Source: Ilumatobacteraceae bacterium (GTDB taxonomy: Bacteria; Actinomycetota; Acidimicrobiia; Acidimicrobiales; Ilumatobacteraceae). Taken from it: a DNA stretch of 35,464 bases. Positions within the stretch are counted from its first letter, which is position 1; each line of letters starts with the position of its first letter. The stretch is taken from NCBI GenBank assembly GCA_016462185.1, contig JAEMTQ010000006.1:1-35464 (forward strand), in the 5' to 3' direction. The position numbers and the translations under genes are program-made. This document shows positions 2,685 through 32,353 of the stretch, piece by piece. The notes under the pieces are model-generated. The model made no database searches. It was not told the origin of the DNA and was given only the letters and a program-made list of their open reading frames with translations.

Positions 2685-5057
2685 ATGAGCAAGAAAGCCG
2701 TTGGTAACGAAAATCTCGCCGACATCGATGTGCTCGAGAGAATTCAACAGCGCGTGTTGTGGCTTGCTGTGCGGATGGTCGACTACGCCAACCGTGAACG
2801 TGAAATACCCCCGGCCCCAGGCGGAAGAGATGCCGAGTTCAACGTAAAAGTTGGTGGCCACATGGCAAGCAGTGCATCGGTAGTCAGCATCATGACTTCA
2901 CTTTGGTTCGGTCACCTAAATGGTGACGACAAAGTTGCCGTCAAACCGCACGCTTCGCCAATCTTTCACGCGATCAAATATTTAACTGGCGAACTCGACA
3001 AATCGTATTTAAAACGGCTTCGCACACTTGGTGGTCTGCAGAGTTATCCGAGTCGCACTAAAGATCCAGATGTTGCCGACTTTTCAACTGGCTCAGTTGG
3101 CCTTGGTGCGGTCGCCCCGTTGTTTGCGTCAATGGTTCGCAGATATGTAGACGCACACTTCACTGCTCGACCAACCGCGCGTTTCATTGCCCTTGTTGGC
3201 GACGCCGAACTTGACGAGGGCAACATTTGGGAAGCCATCGCCGATCCGTCTCTGCAGGGTCTTGGCAACGTGATGTGGATCGTTGACGCCAACCGCCAAA
3301 GCCTCGACCGTGTCGTACCTGGAATGAAAATTAAAAAACTTGCAGGCTTTTTTGCCGATGCAGGTTGGCACGTGATTGAAGCCAAGTATGGCCACAAGTT
3401 GCAAGCTGCATTTGCCCAACCTGGTGGCGAAGCATTGCGCGACTACATCGATGACATGTCAAACGAGCGATACCAAAGTTTGTTCGCCGTTTATGGATCA
3501 GCACTGCGCCAAAAATTTCTTGACGGCGCACCAGACGAAGTTGTCGCATTCATCAACGATGTTTCAGACGATGATCTCGCGCCACTCGTACAAAACCTTG
3601 GTGGCCACGACATCGAAATGTTGCTCGACGCCTATCGCGAGTGCGACCTTGTCACTGATAAACCGAGCGTTGTTTTTGCCTACACCGTCAAGGGCTGGGG
3701 TTTACCAATTGCCGGCGACCCACTCAACCACGCGGCGTTACTTTCTGAGAATCAAATTAATGACCTGCGCAAGCGCAACGGCCTGACTCTCGACAACGAA
3801 TGGGAGCAATTCGAAAAAGATAGCGAAGAAGACAGGGTTTGTCGCGCCGTCGGTGGAGACATCAACAACAAGCAACTGCCAGAGCGCCCAGTTCTACAGA
3901 TTCCAAACGAAGTCAGTTTGGCAATCGGCAAAAAACCTGTTTCAACTCAAGAAATTTTTGGGCGACTATTAACCGGTCTGGGTGCAATCAAACCGATTGC
4001 CGAACGAATGGTCACGATGTCGCCAGATGTCAGCGTCAGCACAAACCTCGGTGGATGGATCAACAAATTTGGCGTGTTCAGTTCTGACGAACAACCAAAT
4101 TATTTAGGCGACGACAGACTTCTGCGATGGAATGAAGGACCTCAAGGTCGACACGTTGAACTTGGTCTAAGCGAAATGAATTTGTTTCTCGCGCTTCACG
4201 CGTTTGGTCTTGGCCACGAACTTCACGGCGAACATCTGCTGCCAATCGGCACTGTCTATGATCCGTTTGTCTGTCGCGGACTTGACGCACTTATTTACGC
4301 GCTCTACAACGGCGCAAGATTTATTTTGGTCGGCACTCCGTCGGGCGTAACGCTTGCTCCCGAAGGTGGCGCGCATCAAAGCACAGTTACAACTTCGCTC
4401 GGCATAGAACTACCAAACATGACTTATGCCGAACCGTGTTTTGCGCGAACCCTCGACTGGCTTCTTTGCAACGGCCTAGATCGTCTCAGCCAACCACACG
4501 GCGACAGCATGTATTTGCGACTCTCCACTCGGCCAATTGATCAAACACCGTTCGAAGATTTACTTGCAAAGCGTGGCGCCGATGCATTGCGCGCCGATGT
4601 TCTTGCTGGTGGATACAGATTGTGCGAACCGACCAACAATCAGCCGGCTGATTTAATCATCGCCGCCACTGGCAGCATCGTGCCTGAAGCAGTGGCCGCT
4701 GCGAAACTTCTCGAAGCCGAAGGAATCAACGCAGTTGTGCTCGATATTTGTTCTCCCGATCGCATCTACCGCGGTTGGCGTGAAGCACAACAAAACGCGA
4801 CACGACACGGCGTAACAACCAAAGATGTCGGCCACTTTGGCGCTTTGCTCGCTGAGCCAGAACGACGACTGCCAATTCTCACGGTGCAAGACTCGGCCAG
4901 TCACTCGCTGGCCTGGTTGGGTTCGGTATTTGGCTCGCGAACCGTGCCGGTCGGCGTTGACGAATTTGGCCAATCAGGCACAATTGCTGAGCTTTACGGC
5001 ACTTTTGATCTTCTTCCCGATCAGCTCGTGAACGCAGCGTTGCTCGCCTTGTCGTAG
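2685..5057 (+). CDS. ThDP-dependent E1-like/transketolase-like enzyme (related to homodimeric pyruvate dehydrogenase AceE, shortened)
   Basis: 790 aa; GDAELDEGNIWEA...VDANRQSLDR ThDP motif, GGHDIEMLLDAY, FAYTVKGWGLPIAGDPLNH, GGAHQSTVTTSLGIELPNM; transketolase-type C-terminal domain. Confidence 0.8.
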   Translation: MSKKAVGNENLADIDVLERIQQRVLWLAVRMVDYANREREIPPAPGGRDAEFNVKVGGHMASSASVVSIMTSLWFGHLNGDDKVAVKPHASPIFHAIKYLTGELDKSYLKRLRTLGGLQSYPSRTKDPDVADFSTGSVGLGAVAPLFASMVRRYVDAHFTARPTARFIALVGDAELDEGNIWEAIADPSLQGLGNVMWIVDANRQSLDRVVPGMKIKKLAGFFADAGWHVIEAKYGHKLQAAFAQPGGEALRDYIDDMSNERYQSLFAVYGSALRQKFLDGAPDEVVAFINDVSDDDLAPLVQNLGGHDIEMLLDAYRECDLVTDKPSVVFAYTVKGWGLPIAGDPLNHAALLSENQINDLRKRNGLTLDNEWEQFEKDSEEDRVCRAVGGDINNKQLPERPVLQIPNEVSLAIGKKPVSTQEIFGRLLTGLGAIKPIAERMVTMSPDVSVSTNLGGWINKFGVFSSDEQPNYLGDDRLLRWNEGPQGRHVELGLSEMNLFLALHAFGLGHELHGEHLLPIGTVYDPFVCRGLDALIYALYNGARFILVGTPSGVTLAPEGGAHQSTVTTSLGIELPNMTYAEPCFARTLDWLLCNGLDRLSQPHGDSMYLRLSTRPIDQTPFEDLLAKRGADALRADVLAGGYRLCEPTNNQPADLIIAATGSIVPEAVAAAKLLEAEGINAVVLDICSPDRIYRGWREAQQNATRHGVTTKDVGHFGALLAEPERRLPILTVQDSASHSLAWLGSVFGSRTVPVGVDEFGQSGTIAELYGTFDLLPDQLVNAALLALS

Positions 5058-28324: not shown

Positions 28325-29632
28325 CTATTGCCGACGGACGCCACTGAAAATAACAATCACACGCTCATCATCGGCAATTTCTTGGCGAATCGCCAACAGC
28401 CCCGCGAGACCTGCGGCACCAGTCGGGCTGACATCAATATTTGTCACACGATGTGCAAGCGCATAACTTTCGTGCACTTGCGCTTCGGTTGCCACAACTG
28501 GATACCCGTCGCTATCGGCCATTGCGTTGCACGCACCGATCCAGTCGTAAGTTTCGTCGTCCAAAATTCCGTCGGCAAGTGAAACCGGTGTGCTCTCCCA
28601 AGGCCACATACATTGCGTCCAACGATCCCCGGCATTACGTGCCCCACCCGAACTCTGGGCAATCTTGAAAGCCCGAGCAAGCGGAGCACAGCCCTGTGTT
28701 TGCACGGCATGCACTTTTGGTTTTGTGGCACCAGCAAAAAACCCTGCGGCAGCACACGCGACAAATGCACCGCCACCAGCCTGCACAAACATTCGACTCA
28801 TCAACGAGCCTGGCAAATTTTCGGCAACCACCGCCATCTCCCAACCAATCGTGCGACCACCATCTAGACACCATGCGTTCTCGGGGCCTTGCACTCCAAA
28901 CGGAATTGAGCCAGCAGCGATTGCTTCACGAAAACGAAACACGCAAGGGTCCCCCGCGGGGTCTGTCGCGATACGTTGACACAACACAGCATTCGCCTGC
29001 AACGAACTTAAAATTTTAAGCGTCGCTTCGTCTGCGCTTTGTGGAACAAAAACTTGAATCGGCCAATTCACTGCACGAGCAAGAGTGCTCGCCGCAATCG
29101 CCGCGTTGCCACATGATGCAATCGCCAGTGCTGGTCGTTCATTCGGGTTCTTCCACGGTGCACGTCCGACTTTTTCGACGGCAATTAAGTGCAGCAGTTC
29201 ACTGAACAGATGTCGGGCTTTTTGCGAGCCGGCAACATTATGCGTCTCGTCTTTTATCCACACACCGCCTTGTTGACTAAATCCCAGTTCATCGCTCAGT
29301 GCATCGTGTCGCGCAAACGGCGTTGTGCGAAAACCGGTGCCGGCAACAACCGAAACTGCGTCGTCAAGTTCGCGAATTATTTTTGTTCGGGCGTCGAAAT
29401 CAAGTCCGAGAGTCGCAGCGAATGCATCCCAAGCCAAATAACGCTGAAACCCAACATAAGGATTCGTGTCACCATTGCTGCGCAGCGGCGCAATTGAATT
29501 TTCTAATTCAAGAACATGATGCCGATCTAAGTCACTCGAGTTCGGACAACGCCAAGAAAATATCTCGCTGATCGCGACTCGCGTTCCACAGGCTGAGCAA
29601 CGCCAACCAGTTACAACTGGTGCTGGCTGCAT
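28325..29632 (-). CDS. Fold-type-II PLP enzyme, threonine synthase-like
   Basis: 435 aa; N-terminal Cys-rich ribbon (WRCSACGTR...WRCPNSS), PLP-lysine region KDETHNVAGSQKARH, AIASCGNAAIAASTLARAV, FVQAGGGAFVACAAAGF. Confidence 0.75.
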   Translation of the reverse strand: MQPAPVVTGWRCSACGTRVAISEIFSWRCPNSSDLDRHHVLELENSIAPLRSNGDTNPYVGFQRYLAWDAFAATLGLDFDARTKIIRELDDAVSVVAGTGFRTTPFARHDALSDELGFSQQGGVWIKDETHNVAGSQKARHLFSELLHLIAVEKVGRAPWKNPNERPALAIASCGNAAIAASTLARAVNWPIQVFVPQSADEATLKILSSLQANAVLCQRIATDPAGDPCVFRFREAIAAGSIPFGVQGPENAWCLDGGRTIGWEMAVVAENLPGSLMSRMFVQAGGGAFVACAAAGFFAGATKPKVHAVQTQGCAPLARAFKIAQSSGGARNAGDRWTQCMWPWESTPVSLADGILDDETYDWIGACNAMADSDGYPVVATEAQVHESYALAHRVTNIDVSPTGAAGLAGLLAIRQEIADDERVIVIFSGVRRQ

Positions 29633-29637
29633 CTTGG

Positions 29638-31182
29638 CTATTTTTTAGCGGCGACTCTACGGTTGAACTCGCCGATGAGTTCGTCCCACACGGGCAAATA
29701 CTTTCGCAAGTCGCGCCAAAACGACTGCGACCTGCGGGCTTCAAACACGGCCAATGGTGTTCCCTGTTGTTCAACCCATGTGTAGTAACCGAGATTAAAA
29801 ATTCGGGTGCGGTCGCGCTCGGTGCAATCAATCATCGCATCTGTGCCAACCATGCCAAGGTGCTCAGCAAAAACTTCTGCCGCGTCCATCTCACCGAATG
29901 AATCGTTAAAGCGTCGCGTCATAGTTTTTACGCGCTCACTTGGATACAAATCGGCGCCGTCCGTTGCAATCGTGATCAAGGCATCGTTCTCACCCAGTCC
30001 GAGCAGTTTCGCCGTCTTGATCGCCGCAATCACGTTGCAAATCGCCGAGAAACCAAAATGCTTCAATGTCTCGACGATTTCCACGGGCACACCTTTACGC
30101 TCGGCCAAGTATCGACAACCTGCGTCAGTGTTGAACATCACGTCCAACTCGTCTGTCGCTCGGTCTGAGACGCCGACAACAACGTCGGTGTTCATCACGT
30201 TATGAATTAAAGGTATGTGCTTGTCGCCGATTCCTTGAATGTTGTGTTCGCCAAAGCCGTTCTCCAACATCGTCGGGCATTCAAGAGCTTCAACGGCGAC
30301 AATTTTTGTTCCGTAGTCATCTTTGAGACGGTCGCCAGCACCAATCGTGCCTGCCGAGCCAGTGGCCGAAGTGAATGCAGCCAAGCGCAACTTGCCGCCA
30401 ACACTTTTGTTTACAAATTCAAAAACACTTGATAGCGCTCGACCCGTAACTTCGTAGTGGCCAGCATGATTGCCGAACTCACAGAATTGGTTGAAAACAA
30501 AATTCTTCGGGTCAAGTTCCATCTCGTTGCATGCGTCATAAATTTCTTTGACGTTGCTCTCGGTTCCCGGAGTGCGCACAATGTCGCTTGGGTCGCTCAC
30601 CCATTTGTCGAGCCAGTCGAATCTCTCTTGCGACATTCCGGCCGGCAAAACAGCAACGCCACGCGAACCCATAATTCGACTGATCGCCACTCCACCGCGG
30701 GCGTAGTTGCCAGTTGATGGCCAAACCGCACGGTGACGACTCGGGTCAAATTGGCCAGTTATGACTCTTGGCGCCAAGCACGAATAAGCCGCCAAAACTT
30801 TGTGCGCAGTAATCATCGGAAAGCGATCGCCGAACATAACAATTATCGGACTATCAATGCCCGTCAACGAACTTGGTAACACGACATGATCTGGCACCGA
30901 CACACGCTCGCCCTGCATGTTGTTGTACCAATGCACGCGAAACAAGTTGCGAGCATCTGCGGCGTTCTTGTCGACACCCTTGGCATAACTCGCATCGATT
31001 TTTGAAGGGTCTGCCAACTGGGCAAATGTCGGAAGCACAACTTTGTTCTTGGCGCAAAGTGCGACACTGTTCTCAAGAGCCTGCTGATCAACGACCGTGT
31101 CAGCTAAGCCAAGTTGTCCAGCCAAAGCAGCAGAGTCGAGCTGACCTTTTGAGCCATGATGCTGTGCAGTTATTGAAGTCAA
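29638..31182 (-). CDS. Fold-type-II PLP-dependent enzyme (cysteine synthase-like superfamily), substrate unknown
   Basis: 514 aa; [78 protein letters not shown] start with CATAAT at -13..-8. Confidence 0.72.
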
Positions 31183-31245: not shown

Positions 31246-31318
31246 GCCGACGTAGCCCAATGGCAGAGGCACGGCGCTTAGGACGCCGCCAGTGAGAGTT
31301 CGAGTCTCTCCGTCGGCA
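31246..31318 (+). tRNA. tRNA with UAG anticodon (Leu, CUA codon) and class I fold, short variable loop
   Basis: Acceptor GCCGACG/CGTCGGC (7 bp), anticodon arm CGGCG-CTTAGGA-CGCCG, variable loop CCAGT (5 nt), T arm GAGAG-TTCGAGT-CTCTC, discriminator A, no encoded CCA. Confidence 0.93.
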
Positions 31319-31324
31319 CAAAAT

Positions 31325-32353
31325 ATGGACGCGCACACAACTGAGCAACTCGCAACCCCCGCACTTCTCGTCGACCTCGACGCCCTGAATAAAAACATGC
31401 GAACGATGTCACTTCGCCATCCAGCCGCAAAATTGCGACCGCACACGAAGGCACACAAGTGCACGGGCATCGCACAACTGCAACAACATTACGGCCACAA
31501 AACTTTTACCTGTGCAACCCCTCGCGAAATAATCGGTATGGCCGCAGCCGGAGTTGGCGAAGACTTTTTGCTAGCCAACGAGGTGGTCGACATCGAACGA
31601 TTAAAAAAACTTGCCCAGATTGCAGAAAATGCTCGCGTAACAATCGCAGTTGACTCACAAGAAACTATCGATGCAGCCGCACGCGCAGGTCTGCACGATG
31701 TATTGATCGATGTCAATGTTGGTCTGCCTCGTTGCGGCATTGCGCCAGAACTTGCCGGCCGACTTGCCGATAGCGCGAGAAAATCTGGGTTAACAGTTCG
31801 AGGCGTAATGGGCTACGAAGGTCACTTGATGATGGCCGACGGCCATGACAACCGAAAGCAAAAAGTCGCAGAGTCAATGCAATTTCTCGCGCGCGCCGCA
31901 AGCGATGTGGGGGGCGAAATCATCTCGGCGGGCGGCACAGGAACTTTCGACATGCACGACGACACATGCATCAACGAACTTCAAGCCGGTTCGTATGCGC
32001 TAATGGATACGCATTACGCAAAACTCGAATTGCCGTTCGTCCAAAGTTGTTTTGTTTTGGGCACCATAATTTCTGCCAACCCGCAATGGCTCGTCATCGA
32101 TGTTGGCCTGAAATCACTCGGTATGGACCATGGCAATCCAACTGTGGATGGCTTCGATGTTCTCTTTTGCTCAGATGAACACACGACACTTAAACCGAAA
32201 AAAGATTCAGCAAAGCAAAAAGTCAAAGTCGGCGAAAGACTTCGCGTAATCCCGGCTCATATTGACCCAACAATGGCGATGCATAGTGTCGCCCACATTG
32301 TTCGTGGTGAAGAACTAATCGACACCTGGCAAATTGACTTACGGGGCTGGTAA
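31325..32353 (+). CDS. D-threonine aldolase/DSD1-like PLP enzyme (alanine racemase-like N-domain)
   Basis: Start corrected from 31292 (inside the tRNA) to ATG 31325. TPALLVDLDALNKNM, LRPHTKAHK (PLP Lys), VGLPRCGI, SAGGTGTF, ELQAGSYALMD, PAHIDPTMAMH metal motif. Confidence 0.87.
   Translation: MDAHTTEQLATPALLVDLDALNKNMRTMSLRHPAAKLRPHTKAHKCTGIAQLQQHYGHKTFTCATPREIIGMAAAGVGEDFLLANEVVDIERLKKLAQIAENARVTIAVDSQETIDAAARAGLHDVLIDVNVGLPRCGIAPELAGRLADSARKSGLTVRGVMGYEGHLMMADGHDNRKQKVAESMQFLARAASDVGGEIISAGGTGTFDMHDDTCINELQAGSYALMDTHYAKLELPFVQSCFVLGTIISANPQWLVIDVGLKSLGMDHGNPTVDGFDVLFCSDEHTTLKPKKDSAKQKVKVGERLRVIPAHIDPTMAMHSVAHIVRGEELIDTWQIDLRGW

What the first reader, a model, noticed from the sequence alone, without database searches (positions are those of the whole stretch)
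31246..31318. tRNA with a Leu (UAG) anticodon but class I architecture
Seen directly: acceptor 7/7 paired, anticodon stem 5/5, T stem 5/5, anticodon loop C-U-UAG-G-A, and only 5 nt (CCAGU) between anticodon and T stems. A15-U48, G18-U55 and G19-C56 are all possible, so the class I tertiary core looks intact. The D arm (GCCC-AAUGGCA-GAGGC) fits only with a bulged A. Established: bacterial tRNA-Leu is normally class II, with a long variable arm. This gene is therefore an atypical Leu isoacceptor or a tRNA charged with, or used for, something else. I have a vague memory of similar short-arm Leu-anticodon tRNAs in actinomycetes but cannot verify it. CTA codons do occur at ordinary Leu positions in this window (e.g. 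PVLQI near 3890, IELPNM near 4400).
Basis: partly seen in the sequence, partly recalled or inferred. Interest (0 to 1): 0.85.

Follow-up and report, generated by a model that had tools for sequence, protein, structure and literature searches.

The report
Short-armed leucine tRNA replaces the standard one
The gene is a leucine transfer RNA that lacks the long extra arm textbooks give to all bacterial leucine tRNAs; in these bacteria it takes the place of the normal version for one leucine codon, and the same short form occurs in many other actinobacteria and in viruses of bacteria.

Summary
Window 31246-31318 (+) is an intact class I tRNA, anticodon UAG, 5-nt variable loop. It is 97-100% identical across its genus and most family genera with a match, at a conserved locus. 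The D arm is the leucine type: A14, A15-U48, G18G19, A20a, plus A73, the elements E. coli LeuRS needs (PMC9976931). Scans for its D arm, short variable loop and T arm with the anticodon left free gave 119/119 Leu anticodons in GTDB genomes and 122/122 in viral contigs. In the order, 36 scored genomes with a class I Leu(X) never show a class II Leu(X); shuffled labels give about 14 overlaps. Five near-complete genomes read in detail each have five Leu isoacceptors, class I filling exactly the missing class II slot; a sixth, G029, shows four. Each of 15 genomes has one LeuRS. Most likely it is an ordinary CUA-reading leucine isoacceptor, charged by LeuRS without the long arm. A 2023 review says no such tRNALeu exists outside animal mitochondria; one paper mentions a short-loop tRNALeu(TAG) in a mycobacterial tRNA cluster. 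Charging was not tested.

The parts
31246..31318 (+). class I tRNA-Leu(UAG), 73 nt, discriminator A73
   Evidence: ARAGORN; Rfam RF00005 57.6 bits; conservation
31246..31252 (+). acceptor stem 5' strand GCCGACG (pairs with 31311-31317 CGUCGGC)
   Evidence: read from sequence; 96-100% of 237 related sequences paired at each position
31255..31270 (+). leucine-type D arm GCCCAAUGGCAGAGGC (A14, A15, G18, G19, A20a)
   Evidence: alignment by eye with class II tRNALeu D arms of the same family; the outer pairs vary but stay paired in phage members
31279..31281 (+). anticodon UAG (reads CUA; wobble CUG)
   Evidence: Leu anticodon in all 119 GTDB and 122 viral matches of a free-anticodon scan
31289..31293 (+). 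short variable loop CCAGU; U48 can pair with A15
   Evidence: U48 in 237/237 sequences (mostly fixed by the search pattern)
31294..31310 (+). T arm GAGAG-UUCGAGU-CUCUC
31326..32353 (+). neighbouring gene, alanine-racemase-N / D-serine dehydratase-like protein; marks the conserved locus
   Evidence: Pfam PF01168 and PF14031; found beside the tRNA across the genus, in other genera of the family and in three loci of another family
29638..31182 (-). neighbouring gene, PLP-dependent (PALP) enzyme; marks the conserved locus
   Evidence: Pfam PF00291; conserved beside the tRNA in the family

Best explanation
It is a functional leucine isoacceptor of ordinary translation with a class I body. LeuRS recognises it through A73 and the D-loop/T-loop corner (A14, A15-U48, G18-U55, G19-C56, A20a), which it shares with class II tRNALeu, so the long variable arm is not needed. 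It carries leucine to CUA (and by wobble CUG) codons in place of the class II tRNALeu(UAG), which this lineage lacks. It belongs to a widespread lineage of short-armed tRNALeu in Actinomycetota and phages that occupies one or two of the five Leu slots per genome (UAA, UAG or CAA, rarely others). Shown: sequence, structure, Leu-only anticodons, complementarity with class II, single LeuRS, conserved locus. Inferred: charging by LeuRS, expression, use at CUA.
For: Free-anticodon scans for the D arm, short variable loop and T arm: 119/119 Leu anticodons in GTDB genomes and 122/122 in viral contigs; A73 in 106/108 and 107/107 distinct sequences. With two mismatches over 397 Actinomycetota, all 25 matches still carry Leu anticodons by my reading. 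In the own family the ordinary class I D arm carries many amino acids. Complementarity in the order: class I UAG genomes have class II UAG in 0/18, against 15/18 of the other class I genomes (Fisher 3e-7); UAA 0/13 against 12/23 (2e-3); CAA 0/5 against 17/31 (0.047); 0 overlaps against a mean of 14.2 when labels are shuffled, 0 of 20,000 shuffles as low. Genomes read by full RF00005 listing: G061 (one contig, 99% complete) has class II GAG, CAG, UAA plus class I UAG and CAA; G188 class II CAA, UAA, CAG, GAG plus class I UAG; G286 class II UAG, GAG, UAA, CAG plus class I CAA; G036 and G057 likewise complete; G029 class II CAA, GAG, UAA plus class I UAG (G286's Leu anticodons and one G036 anticodon). 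One LeuRS above cut-off in each of 15 genomes. Identity elements: PMC9976931 reports A73, A15-U48, G18G19, A20a and the D/T-loop pairs as essential for E. coli leucylation, the long arm as not, and variants lacking it as active. 56 CTA codons in the window genes; at 20 CTA positions read by hand against the best PDB homologue the residue is Leu 8, Ile 4, Met 3, Phe 1, other 4.
Against: No expression or charging data. The host is an 87.6% complete MAG, so absence of a class II UAG in G000 itself is weak; the point rests on relatives. The class II pattern has limited sensitivity (UAG in 10/22 genomes without a detected class I copy), genomes in the test are related, and the CAA test is marginal. 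Outside the order two genomes carry both a class I and a class II tRNA with one anticodon (Corynebacterium flavescens UAG, Actinoplanes subtropicus GAG). A class II tRNALeu(AAG), if A34 is deaminated, might also read CUA in this genus.
Confidence: 0.92

Rival explanations
1. The tRNA is charged with another amino acid and reassigns CUA, like yeast mitochondrial tRNAThr(UAG).
For: It has the unusual class I body, and no class II UAG was found beside it.
Against: All anticodons on this scaffold are Leu anticodons, A73 and the Leu D loop are conserved, the anticodon loop has the normal 7 nt, and CTA positions mostly match Leu/Ile/Met in homologues.
Confidence: 0.02
2. It has a job outside translation (donor for an aminoacyl-tRNA-dependent enzyme, or a regulatory RNA) and does little decoding.
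For: It is a solitary gene next to PLP enzymes.
Against: It fills the missing Leu slot in genome after genome, has a normal anticodon arm, and its anticodon differs between lineages in step with which class II gene is missing.
Confidence: 0.03
3. It is a redundant, recently acquired mobile or phage tRNA with no essential role.
For: Phages carry many such tRNAs; viral contig L294 has the same 58-nt core; in C. flavescens the class I gene is an extra copy with the same sequence as a viral one.
Against: In the window's family it sits at a conserved locus between the same two genes, is near-invariant, and no class II copy of the anticodon was seen beside it in this family.
Confidence: 0.03

Closest known systems
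Bacterial class II tRNALeu (E. coli type)
   Same: Leu anticodon, A73, A14, A15-U48, G18G19, A20a, 3-pair D stem
   Different: 5-nt variable loop instead of a long arm; A9 instead of G9; C12-G23 and C13 instead of G12-C23 and G/A13
Short-variable-loop tRNALeu(TAG) of the Mycobacterium mucogenicum/phocaicum tRNA cluster (PMC6582537)
   Same: tRNALeu(TAG) with a short variable loop in an actinobacterium
   Different: there it is an extra gene in a horizontally acquired tRNA cluster beside a normal tRNALeu(TAG); here it is a single gene at a conserved locus that takes the place of the class II gene. The paper's sequence was not compared
Animal mitochondrial tRNALeu
   Same: tRNALeu without a long arm, identity resting on A73 and A14 (PMC9976931)
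   Different: organellar, partly floppy structure, own LeuRS; no relation is implied
tRNA-Leu genes of phages (Erwinia phage phiEa21-4, Lactobacillus phage Bacchae)
   Same: same D loop and short variable loop, annotated simply as tRNA-Leu
   Different: in phage tRNA arrays; presumably extra to the host set
Yeast mitochondrial tRNAThr(UAG)
   Same: tRNA with a UAG anticodon that is not a class II tRNALeu
   Different: 8-nt anticodon loop and threonine identity (PMC7609411); here a 7-nt loop and Leu elements

Membership tests
tRNA (Rfam RF00005) | cloverleaf scoring above the gathering score | tested here: met
   57.6 bits against 29, full length
bacterial tRNALeu by identity | discriminator A73 | tested here: met
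   A73 in the window; 235/237 relatives
bacterial tRNALeu by identity | A14, A15-U48, G18G19, A20a | tested here: met
   present in the sequence; importance from PMC9976931
bacterial tRNALeu by identity | Leu anticodon | tested here: met
   UAG; 241/241 Leu anticodons on the scaffold in free-anticodon scans
bacterial tRNALeu by identity | aminoacylation by LeuRS | not testable with these tools
   needs an assay
class II tRNA | long variable arm (10 nt or more) | tested here: not met
   5 nt, CCAGU
allo-tRNA (8/4 or 9/3) | 12-bp acceptor branch split 8/4 or 9/3 | tested here: not met
   7 and 5 pairs
CUN-reassigning tRNAThr(UAG) | 8-nt anticodon loop | tested here: not met
   7-nt loop CUUAGGA
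mobile tRNA-cluster tRNALeu(TAG), short loop | lies in a tRNA cluster with HNH endonuclease | tested here: not met
   only tRNA in the window; conserved chromosomal neighbours

The most novel reading that the evidence does not exclude
One lineage of short-armed tRNALeu, spread partly by phages and able to switch among Leu anticodons, has repeatedly displaced the host's class II isoacceptors in Actinomycetota and a few other phyla, so that the long arm of bacterial tRNALeu is an optional feature of each isoacceptor.
Probability: 0.35. Interest if true: 0.75.

Novelty: new variant of a known kind. Interest (0 to 1): 0.62.

Why it matters
[quoted passage not shown] Here bacteria appear to rely on a short-armed form for a codon, and for UUA in the genomes where the class I form bears UAA and no class II UAA is found. 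It is a natural experiment on LeuRS recognition, gives a handle on why the long arm is otherwise kept, warns annotation tools and tRNA classifiers, and bears on UUA-based regulation (bldA-like) in actinomycetes, where the UUA reader may be class I.

Tried and rejected
A first GTDB pattern had a spacing error and found nothing; the corrected one was checked on the window first. The class II pattern alone misses some genes (variant D stems GTG/CAC and others), so full Rfam listings were read for six genomes. Considered and rejected: missed long arm, pseudogene, codon reassignment, allo-tRNA. Promoter and terminator scans found nothing useful. The energy-only fold pairs the D and anticodon arms differently from the cloverleaf; the comparative evidence was preferred. 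No tree was built: 73 nt with fixed arms is too little to settle one origin against several. Literature searches found one prior mention; subscription papers and tRNA databases were not searchable.

Full report
What is there. The window holds one tRNA gene, 31246-31318 on the + strand, a full-length match to RF00005 (57.6 bits). Read from the sequence: acceptor GCCGACG/CGUCGGC, UA, D arm GCC-CAAUGGCAGA-GGC, A26, anticodon arm CGGCG-CUUAGGA-CGCCG, variable loop CCAGU, T arm GAGAG-UUCGAGU-CUCUC, A73. Phage members vary the outer pairs while keeping them paired.

It is a real, selected gene. Among 60 relatives searched, the 73-mer is identical in 13 besides the own genome, including one other genus of the family (14 genomes in all), and 97-99% identical in most others with a match. 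It lies between the same two genes, a PALP enzyme and an alanine-racemase-N/D-serine dehydratase-like protein, across the genus and in other family genera; the downstream gene also recurs beside it in three loci from another family. A MAG titled Acidimicrobiaceae (L126) has the identical tRNA, so the host is most likely an uncultivated member of the Acidimicrobiia; this placement is an inference.

It is a leucine tRNA. I scanned GTDB genomes and viral contigs with a pattern for the D arm, the end of the short variable loop and the T loop, leaving the anticodon arm free. All 119 stretches from GTDB and all 122 viral matches carry Leu anticodons: UAA 66/65, UAG 27/26, CAA 20/22, GAG 4/7, CAG 2/0, AAG 0/2. 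The acceptor, anticodon and T stems of 237 distinct sequences vary widely and stay 92-100% paired at each position, so this is not one copied sequence. A73 stands in 235/237. With two mismatches allowed in 397 Actinomycetota, 24 genomes matched, and by my reading all 25 matches bear Leu anticodons. In contrast the ordinary class I D arm GCUCAG..GGYAGAGC occurs with Met, Gly, Arg, Thr, Asn, Phe and Val in the own genome alone (with small variations).

It replaces a class II isoacceptor. In the order, 33 of 298 genomes matched a strict class I pattern with three mismatches. I scored 36 class I genomes for class II tRNALeu anticodons with a D-arm pattern. No genome had class I and class II with the same anticodon; shuffling the class I labels gives 14.2 such overlaps on average and never 0 in 20,000 shuffles. 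By anticodon: UAG 0/18 against 15/18, UAA 0/13 against 12/23, CAA 0/5 against 17/31. The genomes are related and the pattern is not fully sensitive, so I read complete tRNA lists for six near-complete genomes. G061, a single 4.8 Mb contig, has class II GAG, CAG, UAA and class I UAG and CAA; no other Leu tRNA was seen among its class II genes and the low-scoring class I genes fetched. G188 has class II CAA, UAA, CAG, GAG and class I UAG. G286 has class II UAG, GAG, UAA, CAG and class I CAA. G057 has class II CAA, CAG, UAG, GAG and class I UAA. G036 has class II CAA, GAG, UAA, CAG and class I UAG. G029 has class II CAA, GAG, UAA and class I UAG; its CAG was not found. In the own MAG (87.6% complete) class II CAA, CAG and AAG were found, and no class II UAG. 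Outside the order 24 of 26 named genomes fit (compared by hand), though there the class II pattern often shows only two or three anticodons; Corynebacterium flavescens and Actinoplanes subtropicus carry both forms, and the former's class I gene has the same sequence as a viral one.

How it works. Each of 15 genomes checked has one LeuRS above the curated cut-off, so the same enzyme presumably charges both forms. The review PMC9976931 reports that in E. [quoted passage not shown] The window tRNA has every one of these elements. The step from this to 'LeuRS charges it' is inference. CUA is used 56 times in the window genes, 5.5% of Leu codons. At 20 CTA positions in AceE, Frr, Dxr, IspG, PyrH and MurI, read by hand against the best solved homologue, the aligned residue is Leu in 8, Ile 4, Met 3, Phe 1, other 4, as expected if CUA means leucine.

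Known or new. [quoted passage not shown] One paper notes that a tRNALeu(TAG) in a horizontally acquired tRNA cluster of Mycobacterium mucogenicum and phocaicum has a short variable loop, beside a normal one (PMC6582537). Phages carry such genes annotated simply as tRNA-Leu. I found no account of class I tRNALeu as the sole isoacceptor. Database annotations surely call these genes tRNA-Leu, so the genes are not new, but the pattern appears to be. I rate it a new variant of a known kind.

Origin. Nearest neighbours mostly share the anticodon, but the window's UAG form and the UAA forms of the same order agree at 61-62 of 73 positions, and a viral contig (L294) with a tRNA array has the same 58-nt core on another acceptor stem. 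This fits anticodon switching within the lineage and exchange with phages. Whether the form arose once, by loss of the arm, or several times is open.

Noticed in passing
L017 (G000 contig C129), also G005, G017, G026: The window's genus carries a class II tRNA-Leu with an AAG anticodon in place of the GAG seen in relatives, which is rare in bacteria and might need A34 deamination.
   Followed up: partly
L294:2303-2376: A 134-kb viral contig with a tRNA array encodes a class I tRNA-Leu(UAG) whose 58-nt core is identical to the window tRNA but on a different acceptor stem.
   Followed up: partly
L141, L326: Corynebacterium flavescens has an extra class I tRNA-Leu(UAG) identical to one in a viral contig, beside its class II UAG.
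   Followed up: partly
L114, L125: Some class I Leu(GAG) genes in Actinoplanes/Winogradskya have C33 instead of U33; in L114's genome (Actinoplanes subtropicus) a class II GAG is also present.
   Followed up: no
L393: Lactobacillus phage Bacchae has three short-armed tRNA-Leu genes (UAG, UAA, CAA) in one array.
   Followed up: no
31292-32353: The mechanical ORF starting at 31292 (GTG) overlaps the tRNA; the gene more likely starts downstream, near 31325 (sequence).
   Followed up: no
28325-31182: Two adjacent PALP-family (PLP-dependent) genes lie upstream of the tRNA on the - strand.
   Followed up: no
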